Source of the DNA: Actinomycetota bacterium
Lineage (GTDB): Bacteria > Actinomycetota > Actinomycetes > S36-B12 > UBA10799
Direction: 5' to 3'
Assembly: GCA_963169225.1 (NCBI GenBank)
Contig: CAUJDH010000055.1
Coordinates: forward strand, 1 to 37,194
DNA: 37,194 bases
In this document: in pieces, positions 1,314 to 10,978 of the stretch
How positions within the stretch are numbered: position 1 is the first letter of the stretch
How the letters are laid out: every line of letters begins with the position of its first letter
Notes under the pieces: generated by a model
The model's input: only the letters and a program-made list of their open reading frames with translations
Told to the model about the DNA's origin: nothing
Database searches by the model: none
Position numbers and translations under genes: made by a program

Positions 1314-1353
1314 CATTGTCTAACTGTAGCGTTTTCGCTACAGTTAGACAATG
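1314..1353 (+). promoter_or_regulatory. 40-nt perfect palindrome covering the promoter and start codon of the XRE gene
   Basis: Two 18-base arms (1314-1331 and 1336-1353) are exact reverse complements around a TTTT centre. The right arm ends with the ATG of the XRE gene. Inside the palindrome are a -35-like TTGTCT (1316-1321), a 17-base spacer, and a -10-like TACAGT (1339-1344) exactly six bases before ATG 1351. This predicts transcription starting on the start codon (leaderless) and an operator filling the whole RNA polymerase site. Autorepression by the encoded XRE protein is the obvious inference. In RNA only the last few bases would be present, so the palindrome acts as DNA rather than as an mRNA hairpin. 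Confidence 0.8.
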
Positions 1354-1659
1354 ATGGGAATTGCTCAAATGTTACGAACCATGCGAGAGCGGGCTGGATT
1401 TAGTCAATCCGAACTCGCCCGTAGAACTGGATTGCCACGAACTGTAATCAACGCTTACGAGCATGGAAGCCGAGAACCCCGCAGTGAAGTTGTATCTCTC
1501 ATCGCAGATGCCTGCGGCCAAACCATCGTTGTGCAAGACAAACCAAGAATCGATCTTGAGCGAAATGGGCACATCCTCATGCAGGTCCTTGATCTAGCAG
1601 ATGCACTTCCATTCAGACCCTCACCAGAACTCAAGTTTCCACCTCTGGCTACGTCATGA
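1351..1659 (+). CDS. XRE-family helix-turn-helix regulator (probable antitoxin/repressor)
   Basis: This is a 102-residue protein with a single HTH_3 (Cro/CI-like) domain at about residues 5-60: LRTMRERAGFSQSELARRTG, then PRTVINAYEHGSREP, the classical XRE pattern. The C-terminal 40 residues are short and not recognisable. The gene starts at the end of a perfect palindrome that contains its own promoter. Its stop overlaps the next start (ATGA, 1656-1659), so it is translationally coupled to the nucleotidyltransferase. ATG 1351 and ATG 1354 are both possible; the -10 spacing favours 1351. By analogy with other XRE/nucleotidyltransferase pairs it may repress the operon and act as antitoxin. That role is inferred. 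Confidence 0.85.
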   Translation: MMGIAQMLRTMRERAGFSQSELARRTGLPRTVINAYEHGSREPRSEVVSLIADACGQTIVVQDKPRIDLERNGHILMQVLDLADALPFRPSPELKFPPLATS

Positions 1660-2201
1660 CGTCGCTTACCCAACGTCTCTTCGTTATCGATGAAGCGCTC
1701 AATGCCGCGGACATTCCACATGCGTTCGGCGGGGCGATCGCACTTGCCTACTGCACCCAGGAGCCTCGAAGCACGCAAGACCTAGATATCAATGTGTTCG
1801 TACCTCATGACGAAGCCGATTTCGCCCTTGAAGAACTGGGACAAGTCATCACCGTCACTGCACAGAATCGTGATGACATACGAAAATCAGGCCAAACTCG
1901 CGCTTGGTTTGACGAAACTCCCATCGATTTGTTCTTCAACAACCATCCATTCCACGAATTTGTAGCCAACCGAATTACATTCGCCCCTCTCGGCGAAAAC
2001 ACTATTCCGCTACTGGACTGCACAAGTTTGGCCGTATTCAAGATCTTCTTCAACCGAACCAAAGATTGGGCAGATCTCGAAGCAATGAATGAAGCAGGTC
2101 AACTAGATAAAACAGCACTCAAAGTCATACTTGCAGATCTAATTGGTGACGATGACCCACGTTTGACCCGCTTGGCAAACCTAAATGTCGAATCCGAATA
2201 G
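1656..2201 (+). CDS. AbiEii-like nucleotidyltransferase (candidate toxin)
   Basis: This 181-residue protein has a minimal nucleotidyltransferase core. It shows a GG motif near residue 26 (FGGAIALAY) followed by RSTQDLDINVF at about 38-48, giving the GG...DxD signature of the DNA polymerase beta-like fold. A conserved SLAVFKIFFNRTKDWAD region at about 122-139 resembles the KLxAxxxRxxxxKDxxD element of AbiEii/DUF6036-type proteins. The ATGA overlap with the XRE gene makes a two-gene operon of the kind described for AbiE and MenAT type systems, in which the transferase modifies tRNA or another target. Target and toxicity cannot be read from the sequence. It could instead be an antibiotic-modifying or orphan transferase. 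The motifs look intact. Confidence 0.8.
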   Translation: MTSLTQRLFVIDEALNAADIPHAFGGAIALAYCTQEPRSTQDLDINVFVPHDEADFALEELGQVITVTAQNRDDIRKSGQTRAWFDETPIDLFFNNHPFHEFVANRITFAPLGENTIPLLDCTSLAVFKIFFNRTKDWADLEAMNEAGQLDKTALKVILADLIGDDDPRLTRLANLNVESE

Positions 2202-3796: not shown

Positions 3797-5642
3797 CTAT
3801 CTGACTCGCACTGACACCACGTCAGCGTCGAAGTACGAACTGGCTTTCACTGAGAACCGATAGGTGGCGGGTCGAAGCCGTAGGGAGGCGTGGCCTTTCG
3901 CCTTGACCGTCACGTTTCGAATGGATCGCCACTTGCCGCCAGATTTGCGTTGTACTCGAACGACGGAGCGAACGTCTACTCCGGGCGTCACTATAAGCGT
4001 CCGAAGCTTTGGCTGCTTCCCCTTCTGCGTGACCCTAATATCGGCTTTCACTCTGACCAGCCGCTTCGCGCTAGTGATCGACTTGGGCGAGGCTGTCGAA
4101 ACCCAGACATAGGTATGGCGGGACATCGGAACTGTCACCTTTGCGACGCCAGTCTTGCTGAATCTGCCAGGCGCCACCGGGTAGGACGAAACCCTCGACG
4201 ATCCCCTCGCCTGCACATTCAACGTGACGATTCCCATCGGACGAACGCCGGAATTGCTTCGCGTCTTGACCGTCAGTTGAACCCACGTCCTGCCATTCTT
4301 CGGCTTACCTAAAGTCACCTGCAGCTTCGCGGGATCCGAAGCGTTGCTAATCGGAGCTACTGGCGAAGACTTGGCAGGCGGCACGATGGGCGGAGCTGTC
4401 GCAGGCTGGGTCGGCTCAGGAGTCGTTGGTTCAGGCAGGGTTGGTTCAGGATCCGTCAGCTCAGGTTCGGTCGGCTCGTCGTCACCTTCGGACAGCGGGA
4501 ACTGCGCAATAGCCGCTACCGGATCGATCAGGACGTAACCAAATTCGTCATCACGGCCAGGTGCACCAAGATCACGCGCCGAACCGAGCACCGCATCCTC
4601 TACGTCAATTCCGGGAGTACGAGGCTCGCGTGTCATCGCTCTTGGGCGCTCCCACGCCAATCACACCCGCAGCATTGGCAAGGTAGGACAGTGGACTCCC
4701 CCACTCCCCAGCGTTTCCATTGGACGCCACCACAGATACACCCAAATTGCGCGCATAGTTCACGGCACTTTCGAAATCGTTACTGACGCCGCCAAGCGAC
4801 ATGTTGATGACGTCGGCACCGAGATCCGTCGCCTTGATAATTCCGTTTACAACGTCGGAATTGTAGCCATTCCCGTCCTCGTTGAGCACCCGCATCGGAA
4901 TGATCTTCGTATCGTATGCGAGACCGGTGGTCCCTAGCGGACCTGCTAGAGCGGCGACGATTCCTGCTACGTGGGTTCCGTGCCCATTAGGATCGTCCCC
5001 TCCGTTGGTGCCAGACTCTGGATCAACGAAGACATACCCGTCGAGAACTTGACCTTACAGGTCGGGATGGTTCGCTAGAACCCCAGTGTCAAGAACGGCT
5101 ACCTTGACTCCAGCTCCGATCGCGTCGGCCCACGCCTCCTCAGCCTTAAGTGCCTCTAACGCCCACTGCCAATAGTGGCCGCCACCGGGAAACCCGGTTT
5201 CGCTCATGTCGAACGCCTTGACCTTGCGGTCGATACCGATCTCAATGACAGTGTTGTCCGCCTCGGCCTTCTTGATCACTTGTTCGACATTGCCCGCTTT
5301 GACCTTGGTGACGGTAGCTCCAGTCAAGCCGGCGTCTGATCCGTCTTGGGAATGAATTTTGAGGATTCTCAAAGTCTTGGATTTCGCATACTTAGTGGCA
5401 TCTCGCCGTAGTCCTGCTACACCTCTTACAGACCCCTCGCCCATCCGCTTTGTGCGTTTAGCTTCGGCTGGACGAATTGGAAGATCGACAGCGGCGCCAG
5501 AGAGACTAGCGGAAGTTGCCAGTGAACCACTATGAGCAGTGATTACACCTGGGTCAAGCGCTGATTCGGGATTCTGAATACCGGCACCAACTCCACCGAG
5601 CAAAATCAGGACAGAAACACTCACCAACACCTTGAACCGCAT
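3797..5642 (-). pseudogene. Decayed secreted subtilase (S8 peptidase) with proline-rich linker and C-terminal domain
   Basis: Starting at ATG 5642, with a good GAGGTGAT Shine-Dalgarno, the frame encodes a signal peptide, a propeptide-like region and the catalytic Asp block (VAVLDTGV), then hits an in-frame TAA at 5057-5055. The same frame continues after the stop with GHGTHVAGI (catalytic His) and the oxyanion Asn region (VVASNGNAG). At about 4611-4630 sequence is missing and the frame shifts: ASYS is joined to PGIDVEDAVLGSARDLG, which normally follows the GTSMAxPH serine block by a few tens of residues. The catalytic serine is therefore absent. The downstream frame carries a PEPT-repeat linker and a basic, beta-rich C-terminal domain ending at 3797. 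Two independent lesions make it a clear pseudogene. The annotation joins three open segments (5642-5058, 5054-4608, about 4620-3797). Confidence 0.9.
4413..4472 (-). repeat. 15-bp tandem repeat encoding a PEPTx linker
   Basis: Four imperfect 15-base units (starting at 4413, 4428, 4443 and 4458), each containing a variant of GGTTCAGG, encode the proline/glutamate/threonine linker of the decayed subtilase on the reverse strand. Such linkers usually span the cell wall in secreted actinobacterial enzymes. The unit length of five codons keeps the frame when copy number changes. Confidence 0.7.
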
Positions 5643-5824: not shown

Positions 5825-6106
5825 ATGAGCTACGAAGACCTTCCCTATACGGAACTACGCGACAAGGCTTTCGCCGTTGCCAAAGAGCACCATGATGTCG
5901 GCTTCTTCTTCGACCTTTACCGCCACGCACCGTCGATGCAAGACGCGCAAGCTGAAGGTGGTTCACTTGGTGACATCTCCGGCACCATTATCGACATGAT
6001 CGCCGCAGCGGAGCAGACCTTTGGCGAGGAGAACGTCGGAGATATGGAACCGCTATTCGTTGCCAAGTTCGCCACCTACTTACGTGAACACGACAACGAC
6101 AAATAG
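5825..6106 (+). CDS. Conserved small actinobacterial protein of unknown function
   Basis: This is a 93-residue acidic soluble protein without signal peptide or membrane segment. It opens with SYEDLPYTELRDKAFAVA and contains VGFFFDLYRH and GGSLGDISGTI motifs; the predicted fold is mostly helical. I recall similar short proteins in other Actinobacteria but no function. The start is supported by TAATGT (5813-5818) exactly six bases before the ATG, with a possible -35 TTGAGG at 5788-5793, implying a leaderless mRNA. It is transcribed toward the large surface protein, with hairpins between the two genes acting as likely terminators. Confidence 0.75.
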   Translation: MSYEDLPYTELRDKAFAVAKEHHDVGFFFDLYRHAPSMQDAQAEGGSLGDISGTIIDMIAAAEQTFGEENVGDMEPLFVAKFATYLREHDNDK

Positions 6107-6141: not shown

Positions 6142-6177
6142 GGTGCCTATATATAGAGAGACTGATATATAGGCACC
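6142..6177. terminator. Bidirectional terminator hairpin between convergent genes
   Basis: A perfect 13-bp stem (6142-6154 with 6165-6177; arms GGTGCCTATATAT and its complement) closes a 10-base loop. It sits midway between the convergent stops at 6106 and 6212 and could serve both. There is no clear T-tract on either side, as is common for actinobacterial terminators. Confidence 0.65.
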
Positions 6178-6211: not shown

Positions 6212-9200
6212 CTAGTGGCTGCGGTTTCGTCCGATGCGTCGCATGACGACACCAAGAGCAATCACGATTAGACCGATAATTCCGATCAGAATCGCCCAGC
6301 CACCTCCTGTATGTGGCAACCAACCTGGGCCAGCGTCGCCACCGTTGTCACTTGGGCTCTGAGTCGGCCCACTTGGACTCGGCGGCTCACCCGAACCAGT
6401 CGTTTCTGACGGCGATGGAGTCGGCGGAGTGGGTGGCGGGAAGGTGTTTTCGATCGCGCCAAAACCAATCGATTCCGGTTGTTCCGCTGACGCAGGGTCG
6501 AACGCAGGCATCTTCACCTTGAGTGGATTATCTTTCGTGGCACTAGAAGTCGCACCACGAGAATCTGTTTCCCAAATATCGCATTCAACATCAGGGAACA
6601 CTTCCTCCGTTAAGACAGTTCGCTTACCAGGAACAACTTCACCCTTACCTGAAGTCAGTTCCTTGCCAGTAAAAGAGCACTTGTATTCGACTGGGAATGG
6701 ACTCGTGGTGTCATTACCACCCTCATGGCCGCTGACCTTCTTTTCAACCTCGAGCCTGGAGAACATCATGCCCACACCAACCTTCTCAGGCTCGGCAGGA
6801 AGCAAGAACTTGTCTTTGCCGTTGGGCTCACGGGCCCAGGCAGACTGACCGAACGAGTTCCATGCGATCGGGAGCTGAGTCCTATCCTCTAGCTTGCTAG
6901 GTGAATCCATAGTCAGCTCCAGGTCAACAAAACCACCCGGCGGCAATAACTCACCTTCGTCAAAGAGAACCTGAGTAAAGAACGAACCGGTGCTTGCGTC
7001 CGGTGCACCACTAAAGTCGCAACGGTCAGTATGTCCTGGAAGTAGATCCTCCACGCAAGCACGCTTCTGGTCTGAGTAGCCAGTCTTTACTGACATACCC
7101 GAAGGCCCTTCGGAGGAGACCTCGCCAGCCAGCGTAGGCGACGGCTCCCAGTCCGTAAGTCGAGGCGACGGCACCCAAGTGCCTTGGTCACCTTTATGCG
7201 GCAATGAATCGGCCACACGGATCTCCTTGACCGGATTAGTTCCGGCATTCGACAAACGCAGAATGTAGTCGAACTGCTCGCCAGGATGGATCAATGCAAC
7301 ACACGGGTAGCGGGTGTAGGTACGGCCGTTTTTCGAGATCGTTGGGCATGATGACTCGCTAACCTTCTCGAAGGCGGGTCGCCCAGTACCCACGTTGCTC
7401 GGAATGTAGAACCAATCCAGCGTTCCAGCCACCCACTTATATGAGGCAAAAGCGTTGCCCTCTTGGGTAGTGACGTGAGCCTTTGAAGTACAGAACAATT
7501 GGCCAGCTGGTCCGAAGTAACCGCTCGAGTCAATGCCTTTGATCACTCCGCCTGATGTCGTTGGCGCAGTGCATTCTTCTGGGTTCAGCGAATTGAATCC
7601 ATCTCCTGTGACACCAGCCTCGTTCTCAAGTTTCATACCGGTGGTTGCGCCAGGCATCATCTTGACTTTGAACTTCACCGTGACCTTGTCTCCGGGCAGC
7701 ATGTCCCATTCTTTCCATTGCAACGCCATCTGTTGAACCTTGCCGTTACCGCCCCGGGTCAACGTCGTCGTAGGTGCGGAAGGGTTCGGGCGGTCATCTG
7801 CCATTGCGTACGTCACGACGTACGGGTCACTTGGTCCGTTGCCATAGTTCATGTCGAGGTCGAGCAGGTCTGGCAAACGATCAACAAGCAGCGGATTCTG
7901 GACGATCCCTGTTCCCGTGTTCTTGAATTCAAGAGTGAACTCGTGGGAGCCACCCGGAGAAATGTTGCCATTAGGCTTCTTGACCAGATCAAGCTTGCGC
8001 TTACCCTCGGTCAATTGGAAGCTGCTGGAATCTGGCGGAATCGGGAACTTGCCATCTGGAGCGCTCTTGCGCGGAACAGACTCACCCTCGGCAGATGTTC
8101 CGTTGGTGATCTTGTCTGGAACTGGCGTCTTGGAATCCGAGAAGAGCGTGACCCGAGGCTTGACCTTAAAGCAGACCGAAGCCTCCGGGCAGTTTCCGGT
8201 GGCGGGGAAATTCGTGGTCGGCAAAATCAAAGCTTCGCCCTTGCCATCAGCATTAGTAGCGAAGGTGACTCGGATGCCACCGATACGCTTCGCCCCAGAA
8301 GCACCGGGCCGAAAGGCGGCCACAATATTTTGCGTGTTGCTGGTGCTGAAGTTGTTGTTCAAAACCCACGTATCAGCTGTGCAACCGGCACCGAATTCGC
8401 AGAGCTCAATCTTGGTGTGGGTAGCTCCAGGAGGCTTATTGAGGAAGATCTGCGTTGACGACACATCTACCGCATCAAAGAAGTTCGCGGTACCCCCCGA
8501 AGCATCGCCTTTGTCGGTAATAGTGAGGCTCTTGAGGTAAAGCGGTCCACCATTATTTACGCGAAGCTTGGTAGTGACCTCCGCCGCAGTAGCGGACGTC
8601 AAAGTACGGGGAACTTCACCAGGGACAAACATCTTCTGGAGTGCACCAGAAACGTCCCCTTCCTTTACCTCCACGCCACCCGAACAGCGGTCCTTGCTCC
8701 ACGTCACTCCGCCATCAATAGATACGTTCATGCAGTTAGTGAACTCGGCACCAGGTTTGACATCGTCACGCACATCAACGTCCAACCGAACGTTGATTAC
8801 TTGACCACGTAGCAGCGGTGTCGTGGTGCTGACTCGGAAACCTTTAGCTCGCTCCAAAAGAGCATCGTCTTCTTTGTAGTCGACATAAGCACCCTTACCT
8901 CCATCGGCCTCTGGGTCCCAGAGCTCGATACGAGGTGGATTGTCCGCAACGACGCCTGAACCACTCACCGTGATTTTCTTGACCCGGATCGTGTCCCACG
9001 TATCGTTCTGCTGAGTCGGATCCATCGGATCAGCCAAAATCACATGCTCCAACGGGACATAGCCACTGTTGTTGAACGACATGTTGATGGTCAATGGCTG
9101 ACCCGGAACTATAGTTCCTACTCCATTAGTGGTCTTAGTTTGTCCGCCACTAGATGGTTCATCGGTTCGAACAGTCAGGGTGTCTTGCACCTCTCCGCTA

Positions 9201-10978
9201 AATGAACCACTGCCATCCATGGGGTTGTCACCCTCGACCCACGCAATATTGTGCAACGGGCTGTTTTTGGTTTGTTGTTTGCCATTGAGCTCACCTGTCA
9301 GGCTGAGTCCGGCAGCTGCACCATTGGCGATAGCGGGCTTCTTAGGATCACTTTCGAACCTAGCTGAGGCCGAAGTGATGAACTCCCCCTCTGGACACGG
9401 CTTAATCTTTTTACCGCCATCAGCAGGCAAGAAGTCCTTCTGAATTTCTGAGCCACCGGAGCACTTGATCGTCACATGGGCTTTGACAGCACCTTCAGGG
9501 AATGTGAGTCGGAATTCGGTCGGTTCGAAAAAGCCCAGGTCGGTTCCTTCTTTGGGATCAGTGATGGTGATGTTGGAGATCGGGAAGCCACTGTTATTGG
9601 TTGACGTCACCACTGTGGACACAGGGGTTCGCTGGTTGGCGATCGCGTCGTCGCCACCGTTGGTGAAGTTGTTCTTGGGATCCACAAAATAGGACTTGGT
9701 CGAATCGACCCTCACGATATTCGGGTTGAGCGTGTAGGGAGCTTGCACTTTCGGACCGGACACCCAGACGATTTCACCCTTGTCGTTCTTGCCGTTGATA
9801 CCAGGAGTCACTTCATTTCGCACGGTCGTCGAAGTATCTACCTGGACCTTCTCGCCGTTATCACGGAAAGTGTCGCGAGCCTTGAACTCCATCTCGATCT
9901 TGCCGGTGCGATCAGCACCATGACCTGCGGCGATGGGTTCACCCTTGTCGTTGACAAATGTGTAACGAATTCCCGTGACGTCGCTCGCATTGACACCGCC
10001 AGGTAGAGCCAAGTCCGGACCAGCCTGTTTGCCACTGTCTTTCCACTGATCGTCAGCACATCCACCGGCCTCGGTACACACCGACACGATTACGCGGTCG
10101 GCATCCTTCGGGAACTGGGTGACTTTACCTGCCGAATGAACATCGAATACGTTGAAGAATTCGCTCGACACATCCTCAATACGAAGCTGATCCACTTCAG
10201 TAACAGTCGTTGAACTATTGGTGACACCCAAATTTGCCTTGACGACTTGGCCGTTCCCGGCGATTCCACCACCGGGGCTAATCGACTTGGCGGCGGTGAC
10301 TTCCAAATCAACGGGGACCTCAACCTTGACGTTTGCATCGTCTTCTTGTTTATCTGCATTGCTCGCTGTGACGTTAGCAACGTTGGGGACGACTGTTCCT
10401 GGTTTGATATCGGTGTCAGCAGGAACCGTGATTCCGACTCTGAATTGAAGACTCGACCCGGCACTCATACTGGCCGATGTCACAGTCAACGTGTTCGTTG
10501 ATTCATCGAAGTTGACATTTGCGCCACCAACGCTGTCAGGCGGCGTCACTTTGAAGGCCGGATCAAATTTGTCAGTGATCACAACGTTTTTACAAGGGGT
10601 CGTGATACTGGAACATGACACTTGAATGTCGTAGTAGAACGTATCGCCAGCCTTGATGGTGTCTTCGCTAGCAGTTTTATTGATCGCCAGTAGGGCGTCA
10701 CTATTTTCGTTATCTTTTGTGACTTTCTTACTATCCTTTGCGGATCCTTTGCTGTCTTTGGACACGTCGTTATTGTTGGGCGTGCCATTACCGAGGGAAC
10801 CAGTAATGGGTGGATCATCCCTATCGGAAGGGTTTGCCAATTGCGTAACACTATCCGGTGAAGTTTCTGCACCTGCTGGACTACCAGCCATGCCGACCGC
10901 ACCTAGCACTAGTGCAAGCACAGCAAAGATAACTACAACGAGACGCATTTGGGCATTCTTCGCCCCTTGCCTGATCAT
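6212..10978 (-). CDS. Giant LPXTG-anchored surface protein with DUF11-type repeats
   Basis: This 1588-residue protein is built for the cell surface. Residues 1-38 form a signal peptide (hydrophobic core VVVIFAVLALVLGAVGMAG, cleavage near AGA-ET). An acidic low-complexity stretch (DSKGSAKDSKKVTKDNENS) comes next, followed by several beta-sandwich repeats with DUF11 hallmarks (INKTASEDTIKAGDTFYYDI, LVKKPNGNISPGGSHEFTLE, NTGTG). Near the C-terminus is a DUF5979-like domain (VEKKVSGHEGG). The tail is a Pro/Ser/Thr cell-wall spacer, then LPHTG at 1554-1558, a hydrophobic helix and a basic end (RRIGRNRSH): a complete sortase signal. No sortase gene is in the window. ATG 10978 has TACCAT (10990-10985) exactly six bases upstream, fitting a leaderless start; ATG 10948 is an alternative. 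An adhesin or structural role is inferred. No frameshift was seen. Confidence 0.9.
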   Translation of the reverse strand: MIRQGAKNAQMRLVVVIFAVLALVLGAVGMAGSPAGAETSPDSVTQLANPSDRDDPPITGSLGNGTPNNNDVSKDSKGSAKDSKKVTKDNENSDALLAINKTASEDTIKAGDTFYYDIQVSCSSITTPCKNVVITDKFDPAFKVTPPDSVGGANVNFDESTNTLTVTSASMSAGSSLQFRVGITVPADTDIKPGTVVPNVANVTASNADKQEDDANVKVEVPVDLEVTAAKSISPGGGIAGNGQVVKANLGVTNSSTTVTEVDQLRIEDVSSEFFNVFDVHSAGKVTQFPKDADRVIVSVCTEAGGCADDQWKDSGKQAGPDLALPGGVNASDVTGIRYTFVNDKGEPIAAGHGADRTGKIEMEFKARDTFRDNGEKVQVDTSTTVRNEVTPGINGKNDKGEIVWVSGPKVQAPYTLNPNIVRVDSTKSYFVDPKNNFTNGGDDAIANQRTPVSTVVTSTNNSGFPISNITITDPKEGTDLGFFEPTEFRLTFPEGAVKAHVTIKCSGGSEIQKDFLPADGGKKIKPCPEGEFITSASARFESDPKKPAIANGAAAGLSLTGELNGKQQTKNSPLHNIAWVEGDNPMDGSGSFSGEVQDTLTVRTDEPSSGGQTKTTNGVGTIVPGQPLTINMSFNNSGYVPLEHVILADPMDPTQQNDTWDTIRVKKITVSGSGVVADNPPRIELWDPEADGGKGAYVDYKEDDALLERAKGFRVSTTTPLLRGQVINVRLDVDVRDDVKPGAEFTNCMNVSIDGGVTWSKDRCSGGVEVKEGDVSGALQKMFVPGEVPRTLTSATAAEVTTKLRVNNGGPLYLKSLTITDKGDASGGTANFFDAVDVSSTQIFLNKPPGATHTKIELCEFGAGCTADTWVLNNNFSTSNTQNIVAAFRPGASGAKRIGGIRVTFATNADGKGEALILPTTNFPATGNCPEASVCFKVKPRVTLFSDSKTPVPDKITNGTSAEGESVPRKSAPDGKFPIPPDSSSFQLTEGKRKLDLVKKPNGNISPGGSHEFTLEFKNTGTGIVQNPLLVDRLPDLLDLDMNYGNGPSDPYVVTYAMADDRPNPSAPTTTLTRGGNGKVQQMALQWKEWDMLPGDKVTVKFKVKMMPGATTGMKLENEAGVTGDGFNSLNPEECTAPTTSGGVIKGIDSSGYFGPAGQLFCTSKAHVTTQEGNAFASYKWVAGTLDWFYIPSNVGTGRPAFEKVSESSCPTISKNGRTYTRYPCVALIHPGEQFDYILRLSNAGTNPVKEIRVADSLPHKGDQGTWVPSPRLTDWEPSPTLAGEVSSEGPSGMSVKTGYSDQKRACVEDLLPGHTDRCDFSGAPDASTGSFFTQVLFDEGELLPPGGFVDLELTMDSPSKLEDRTQLPIAWNSFGQSAWAREPNGKDKFLLPAEPEKVGVGMMFSRLEVEKKVSGHEGGNDTTSPFPVEYKCSFTGKELTSGKGEVVPGKRTVLTEEVFPDVECDIWETDSRGATSSATKDNPLKVKMPAFDPASAEQPESIGFGAIENTFPPPTPPTPSPSETTGSGEPPSPSGPTQSPSDNGGDAGPGWLPHTGGGWAILIGIIGLIVIALGVVMRRIGRNRSH

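What the first reader, a model, noticed from the sequence alone, without database searches (positions are those of the whole stretch)
1314..1353. 40-nt perfect palindrome fuses operator, promoter and start codon of an XRE/nucleotidyltransferase pair
Seen: 18-base perfect arms around TTTT, with -35-like TTGTCT, a 17-base spacer and -10-like TACAGT inside, and the ATG six bases after the -10. The whole RNA polymerase site is one dyad and transcription would begin on the start codon. Inference: the XRE protein binds here and shuts off its own leaderless operon. Together with the AbiEii-like transferase, this looks like a compact toxin-antitoxin or phage-defence module near a tRNA and an IS remnant.
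Basis: partly seen in the sequence, partly recalled or inferred. Interest (0 to 1): 0.6.

Follow-up and report, generated by a model that had tools for sequence, protein, structure and literature searches.

The report
Self-repressor site over leaderless toxin-antitoxin promoter
A perfect 40-base mirror-image DNA sequence sits exactly on the promoter and start codon of a two-gene regulator/enzyme pair that looks like a toxin-antitoxin module; about 90 relatives show that its inner 20 bases are the pair's conserved repressor-binding site, while the full 40-base length is peculiar to this genome.

Summary
The palindrome is real: 18-nt perfect arms around TTTT at 1314-1353, by far the longest in the window (shuffles reach at most 11). 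It precedes a 102-aa XRE protein and an overlapping 181-aa nucleotidyltransferase. 102 of 106 homologous transferase loci carry the XRE gene upstream. Most have a palindrome at the same place: TGTTAGCGnnnnCGCTAACA or TGGTATCnnnnnnGATACCA, centred 17-18 nt before the start codon. The two arms vary together. A TANNNT -10 box ends 6-7 nt before the start in 72 of 95 loci (background about 1 per offset), with no Shine-Dalgarno enrichment. A leaderless promoter whose -10 lies inside the operator is therefore a family trait, in Actinomycetota and Gammaproteobacteria. The -35 is not conserved, so 'the whole polymerase site is one dyad' is overstated. The outer 8-10 bp of each arm, including the pairing of the ATG, are absent in the nearest relatives. 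The transferase model matches the tRNA-modifying toxin MenT1 (Z 18), with all four key residues kept. Best reading: an autoregulated, leaderless XRE/MenT1-like toxin-antitoxin module. Phage defence, tRNA linkage and an IS remnant are not supported. Binding, transcript start and toxicity are untested.

The parts
1314..1353 (.). 40-nt perfect palindrome (18-nt arms, TTTT loop)
1324..1343 (.). core operator CTGTAGCGTTTTCGCTACAG, the part conserved in relatives (family forms TGTTAGCGnnnnCGCTAACA and TGGTATCnnnnnnGATACCA); proposed XRE dimer site
   Evidence: unique in own genome
1339..1344 (+). -10 box TACAGT (TANNNT) inside the right arm
   Evidence: sequence; TANNNT 6-7 nt before the start in 72 of 95 relatives; same TACAGT-6 nt-ATG in L116
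1316..1321 (+). -35-like TTGTCT; probably incidental
   Evidence: present in sequence; not conserved in family
1351..1353 (+). start codon ATG and predicted transcription start (leaderless mRNA)
   Evidence: geometry conserved; transcript not mapped
1351..1659 (+). XRE-family HTH protein, 102 aa; proposed repressor and antitoxin
   Evidence: HTH_3 E 1e-13; alignment A2; model pLDDT 90
1438..1464 (+). XRE recognition helix PRTVINAYE (residues 30-38)
   Evidence: HTH second helix in model; helix type matches operator type in 85 of 85 loci but with a single change on the tree
1591..1656 (+). XRE C-terminal conserved stretch (consensus VLxLAExLPxRxRxxLxxP), proposed transferase-binding part
   Evidence: alignment A2; role inferred
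1656..2201 (+). MenT1-like nucleotidyltransferase, 181 aa, overlapping the XRE gene by 4 nt (ATGA); proposed toxin
1773..1787 (+). active-site codons T40, D42, D44 (T40 and D42 equal MenT1 T39 and D41)
   Evidence: alignment A1, alignment to 8an4, PMC11375011

Best explanation
The inner 20 bp of the palindrome (1324-1343) is the operator of the adjacent XRE gene. The operator contains the -10 box of a promoter that starts transcription on, or within a base or two of, the XRE start codon, so the XRE/nucleotidyltransferase mRNA is leaderless. An XRE dimer (with or without the transferase) binding there blocks RNA polymerase and shuts off its own operon. The second gene is a MenT1-like nucleotidyltransferase, most likely a toxin that modifies tRNA ends, and the XRE protein, probably through its conserved C-terminal tail, is its antitoxin. 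Loss of XRE would free both the promoter and the transferase. Shown here: the palindrome, its conservation and arm covariation, the -10/start geometry, constant gene pairing, the transferase fold and active site. Inferred: binding, repression, transcript start, toxicity, tRNA target and neutralisation. The outer 8-10 bp of each arm, reaching the ATG, are a local extra whose role is unknown.
For: XRE gene directly upstream of the transferase in 102 of 106 homologous loci, usually overlapping by 4 or 7 nt. 10-bp dyad scores of 9-10 in 42 of 95 loci against 0.3% of shuffles. Operator centre 17-19 nt before the start in 55 of 73 loci with a -10 box; 14 others lie about one helical turn further up (25-31 nt) and keep the -10/start spacing. 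TANNNT ending 6 nt (46) or 7 nt (26) before starts that were chosen without looking at the operator, background 1.3 per offset; no Shine-Dalgarno enrichment (7 of 95, shuffled 10.9); other ORFs in the same loci 35 of 633. The arms covary at dyad positions 3, 5, 8 and 9 (0 of 1000 arm shuffles reach the counts). Recognition helix type and half-site agree in 85 of 85 loci. Transferase model pLDDT 94 matches MenT1 at Z 18.1, TM 0.75. MenT1 residues T39, D41, K137, D152 correspond to T40, D42, K129, D140, three invariant and one nearly so. M. tuberculosis TA pairs are mostly leaderless, with TANNNT and no -35 (PMC3898074).
Against: No experiment: binding, transcript end and toxicity are untested. 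The helix/operator match reflects a single evolutionary change, so it is not independent statistical proof. About ten loci with a clear operator lack a -10 box at the expected place. The 40-nt extension is not explained by the family operator. A MenT1-like fold is shared with antibiotic nucleotidyltransferases such as ANT(2'')-Ia (Z 13), so a toxin role rests on pairing and active-site likeness.
Confidence: 0.8

Rival explanations
1. The palindrome works as RNA: in read-through transcripts from the upstream gene the 18-bp stem hides the AUG, so the pair is translated only from leaderless mRNA.
For: The folded strand gives -35 kcal/mol, z -7.5, with AUG 1351-1353 in the stem; the upstream gene reads the same way and ends at 1224; no + strand terminator-like site found between.
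Against: Relatives keep the DNA core but not the pairing over the ATG, including the two nearest ones; the covariation is explained by a protein dimer on DNA.
Confidence: 0.1
2. The pair is an autoregulated operon as described, but the transferase is not a toxin: for example a small-molecule or housekeeping nucleotidyltransferase.
For: Fold also close to ANT(2'')-Ia and LnuA; Pfam AbiEii match just below cut-off; no NCBIfam model matches.
Against: MenT1 is clearly the best match (Z 18 vs 13), the MenT1 phospho-acceptor Thr is invariant, constant pairing with a DNA-binding protein, patchy presence (25 of 396 genomes of the phylum sample).
Confidence: 0.15
3. The palindrome is a repeat or mobile-element end, or a terminator of the upstream gene, and its place at the promoter is coincidental.
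Against: Single copy in the genome; no terminator-like site at the palindrome; core and spacing conserved before the same gene in two phyla.
Confidence: 0.02

Closest known systems
MenAT1 of Mycobacterium tuberculosis (Rv0078A/Rv0078B)
   Same: Transferase fold over 171 residues (Z 18.1, 20% identity) and the four key residues; small two-gene module.
   Different: MenA1 is a 68-aa protein without a DNA-binding domain (PMC10435456); here the partner is an XRE HTH protein. Target and neutralisation unknown here.
AbiE / MenAT3 and MenAT4 type systems (AbiEi-like antitoxin with DUF1814/AbiEii toxin)
   Same: Nucleotidyltransferase second gene, DNA-binding first gene; AbiEi and Rv2827c repress their own promoters at inverted repeats (PMC7319586).
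   Different: AbiEi antitoxins are two-domain winged-helix proteins; here a single XRE domain plus a short tail. Transferase is 181 aa against about 290 for MenT3/MenT4. AbiEii Pfam score below cut-off.
Xress-MNTss of Streptococcus suis
   Same: XRE regulator followed by a nucleotidyltransferase; XRE and the complex bind and repress their own promoter, which holds palindromes (PMC8406773).
   Different: The transferase was described as kanamycin-nucleotidyltransferase-like; homology to the present pair was not tested; no leaderless operator described in the passages read.
Leaderless genes of Actinobacteria with TANNNT about 12 bp before the start
   Same: Same -10 signal and distance (PMC3160421); M. 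tuberculosis toxin-antitoxin pairs are predominantly leaderless (PMC3898074).
   Different: Here the -10 box is also part of a conserved palindromic operator.

Membership tests
MenT / DUF1814 (AbiEii) nucleotidyltransferase toxins | NTase fold with GG and DxD motif, catalytic Lys and Asp, Ser/Thr at the MenT phosphorylation site | tested here: met
   GG25-26, T40, D42, D44, K129, D140; alignment to MenT1 8an4 E 2e-6; structure match Z 18
MenT / DUF1814 (AbiEii) nucleotidyltransferase toxins | Pfam AbiEii (PF08843) at gathering score | tested here: not met
   21.7 bits against cut-off 22.5; 12 of 22 family members match at E 0.01 or better
MenT / DUF1814 (AbiEii) nucleotidyltransferase toxins | tRNA nucleotidyltransferase activity and growth inhibition | not testable with these tools
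   needs expression and tRNA assays
Autoregulated toxin-antitoxin operon with XRE antitoxin | Two adjacent, usually overlapping small genes kept together across genomes | tested here: met
   XRE upstream of transferase in 102 of 106 loci
Autoregulated toxin-antitoxin operon with XRE antitoxin | HTH protein with a palindromic site at its own promoter | tested here: met
   HTH_3; conserved dyad with covarying arms
Autoregulated toxin-antitoxin operon with XRE antitoxin | Toxicity of the second gene relieved by the first | not testable with these tools
   needs growth assay
Leaderless gene | TANNNT -10 box ending 6-8 nt before the start codon, no Shine-Dalgarno | tested here: met
   TACAGT, 6 nt, ATG; family 72 of 95 at 6-7 nt, no SD enrichment
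Leaderless gene | Mapped transcript 5' end on the start codon | not testable with these tools
   no RNA data held
Phage-defence system | Match to a known defence family or presence in phage/prophage or defence islands | tested here: inconclusive
   PADLOC: only generic HTH models and weak AbiEii, E 0.006; no match in phages, plasmids or viral contigs; neighbourhoods not surveyed

The most novel reading that the evidence does not exclude
The perfect 40-nt palindrome is a two-level lock: as DNA it is the XRE operator over the -10 box, and as RNA its outer arms hide the start codon in any read-through transcript, so this toxin-antitoxin pair can be translated only from mRNA that begins at the start codon itself.
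Probability: 0.1. Interest if true: 0.6.

Novelty: new variant of a known kind. Interest (0 to 1): 0.42.

Why it matters
The comparison links an uncharacterised MenT1-like enzyme to an XRE partner and gives the pair's operator consensus in two types, across Actinomycetota and Gammaproteobacteria. It shows the operator fused with a leaderless -10 box and held at 17-18 nt from the start, sometimes shifted about one helical turn. MenT1 itself has an antitoxin without a DNA-binding domain, so this family could show how a MenT1-like toxin is kept under transcriptional control. The prediction (operator sequence, transcript start, active-site residues) is precise enough to test in a laboratory host.

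Tried and rejected
(1) Palindrome as repeat or IS end: single copy in the genome, and the stretch 2195-2345 downstream is also single copy. (2) tRNA linkage as a family trait: 1 tRNA in 60 loci. (3) Phage or plasmid origin: no homologue in the phage, plasmid or viral-contig collections, pattern not in viral contigs. (4) Helix/operator co-variation as independent proof: the match is perfect, 22/63 with no exception, but the tree needs one change only. (5) Empty-site comparison: in family relatives the two flanking genes lie on different contigs or far apart, so insertion could not be shown. (6) A divergent leaderless ORF from the minus-strand ATG at 1316-1314: it stops after five codons on reading the sequence. 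(7) A conserved -35: TTG shows no peak.

Full report
Observation. The palindrome is exactly where described: CATTGTCTAACTGTAGCG TTTT CGCTACAGTTAGACAATG at 1314-1353, 18-nt perfect arms. It is the longest perfect palindrome of the window; 20 shuffles give at most 11-nt arms. TACAGT (1339-1344) lies in the right arm and the ATG at 1351 follows six bases later. A stop codon (TAG, 1345-1347) in the XRE frame rules out an earlier in-frame start. TTGTCT stands at -35 distance but is a 4-of-6 match; a standard promoter scan reports nothing.

Genes. The XRE protein is 102 aa (HTH_3, E 1e-13), modelled as five helices with the recognition helix at residues 30-38. The next gene starts in an ATGA overlap and encodes a 181-aa nucleotidyltransferase, just under the Pfam AbiEii cut-off (21.7 vs 22.5 bits).

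Relatives. The transferase was found in 25 of 396 genomes sampled from the phylum and in 80 further loci of named genomes: mainly Acidimicrobiia, Solirubrobacterales and Gammaproteobacteria. The XRE gene stands upstream in 102 of 106 loci, mostly overlapping by 4 or 7 nt.

The operator. Nearly all these loci have a dyad just before the XRE start. Two types occur: TGTTAGCGnnnnCGCTAACA and TGGTATCnnnnnnGATACCA. The window (CTGTAGCGTTTTCGCTACAG) belongs to the first. Symmetry is far above shuffles. The arms change together: at dyad positions 3, 5, 8 and 9 none of 1000 arm shuffles reaches the observed complementarity. That is expected if a symmetric dimer reads the site. Recognition helices lacking the T-S-H/P pattern go with GCT half-sites, those with it go with GAT, 85 of 85. 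This is suggestive only, because the tree of the transferases needs a single change.

The leaderless promoter. With XRE starts chosen from the protein profile and not from the operator, TANNNT ends 6 nt before the start in 46 and 7 nt in 26 of 95 loci; other offsets average 1.3. Other ORFs of the same loci show it in 35 of 633. Shine-Dalgarno-like motifs are not enriched (7 of 95, shuffled 10.9). This is the known signature of leaderless genes in Actinobacteria (PMC3160421), and M. tuberculosis toxin-antitoxin pairs are mostly leaderless with TANNNT and no -35 motif (32 of 37 pairs; PMC3898074). In the common arrangement the -10 box is part of the operator and the dyad centre is 17-19 nt before the start (55 of 73). 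In 14 loci the operator sits 25-31 nt before the start, about one helical turn further up, and a separate -10 box keeps its distance. The geometry also holds in gammaproteobacterial loci such as L069, L086, L102 and L112.

What is special in the window. Its dyad runs for 18 consecutive pairs (position 3 to 20), the longest in the set; the next are 14, 13 and 12. The two nearest relatives, L035/L115 (59% identity) and L116 (56%), keep the right half-site and the -10/start spacing, L116 with the same TACAGT-6 nt-ATG, but not the outer arms. Dyad positions 11-14 and 17 are slightly above chance across the family, 18-20 are not. So the extension to the ATG is recent and local. As RNA it would hide the AUG in a -35 kcal/mol hairpin, which could silence read-through transcripts; no relative supports this.

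The enzyme. AlphaFold2 on the family alignment gives pLDDT 94. Foldseek and VIA-align 2 put MenT1 of M. tuberculosis first (TM 0.75, E 4e-9; Z 18.1, rmsd 2.7, 171 residues), well above ANT(2'')-Ia at Z 13 and MenT3 at Z 10. MenT1 T39, D41, K137 and D152 (PMC11375011) correspond to T40, D42, K129 and D140 (from the alignment, allowing one residue of numbering offset). T40, D42 and D140 are invariant in 22 members, K129 in at least 90%. MenA1, the MenT1 antitoxin, lacks a DNA-binding domain (PMC10435456); here the partner is an XRE protein, closer in layout to Xress-MNTss (PMC8406773).

Mechanism and limits. The best account is negative autoregulation of a leaderless toxin-antitoxin operon: XRE covers the -10 box, blocks polymerase, and also neutralises the transferase, probably through its conserved C-terminal tail. 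Sequence comparison supports the operator, the promoter geometry and the enzyme class. Binding, repression, toxicity, tRNA target and neutralisation are inferred.

Phage defence, tRNA linkage and an IS remnant found no support. The -35 is not conserved.

Noticed in passing
window 6142-6177: A second long perfect palindrome (GGTGCCTATATAT ... ATATATAGGCACC, 13-nt arms) between the ends of two convergent ORFs (5825-6106 + and 6212-10978 -); possibly a two-way terminator.
   Followed up: no
window 4605-5642, minus strand: A subtilisin-like protease seems to be split into two ORFs (5055-5642 and 4605-4895) with a further ORF at 3797-4660; looks like a decayed or frameshifted gene.
   Followed up: no
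L017, 300-500 nt before its transferase gene: Two further long near-perfect inverted repeats (19- and 20-nt arms) just upstream of the XRE gene, different from the operator.
   Followed up: no
L131 (G398), about 80-550: A transferase relative (45%) for which no XRE match was found; the reading frame before it keeps the C-terminal tail motif, and a tRNA-like sequence lies a few hundred bases upstream.
   Followed up: partly
L023, just before the XRE gene: Another member with an unrelated perfect palindrome of 18-nt arms (AACTCTGGGCATCGACGA and its complement) upstream of the start; its sequence fits neither operator type.
   Followed up: no
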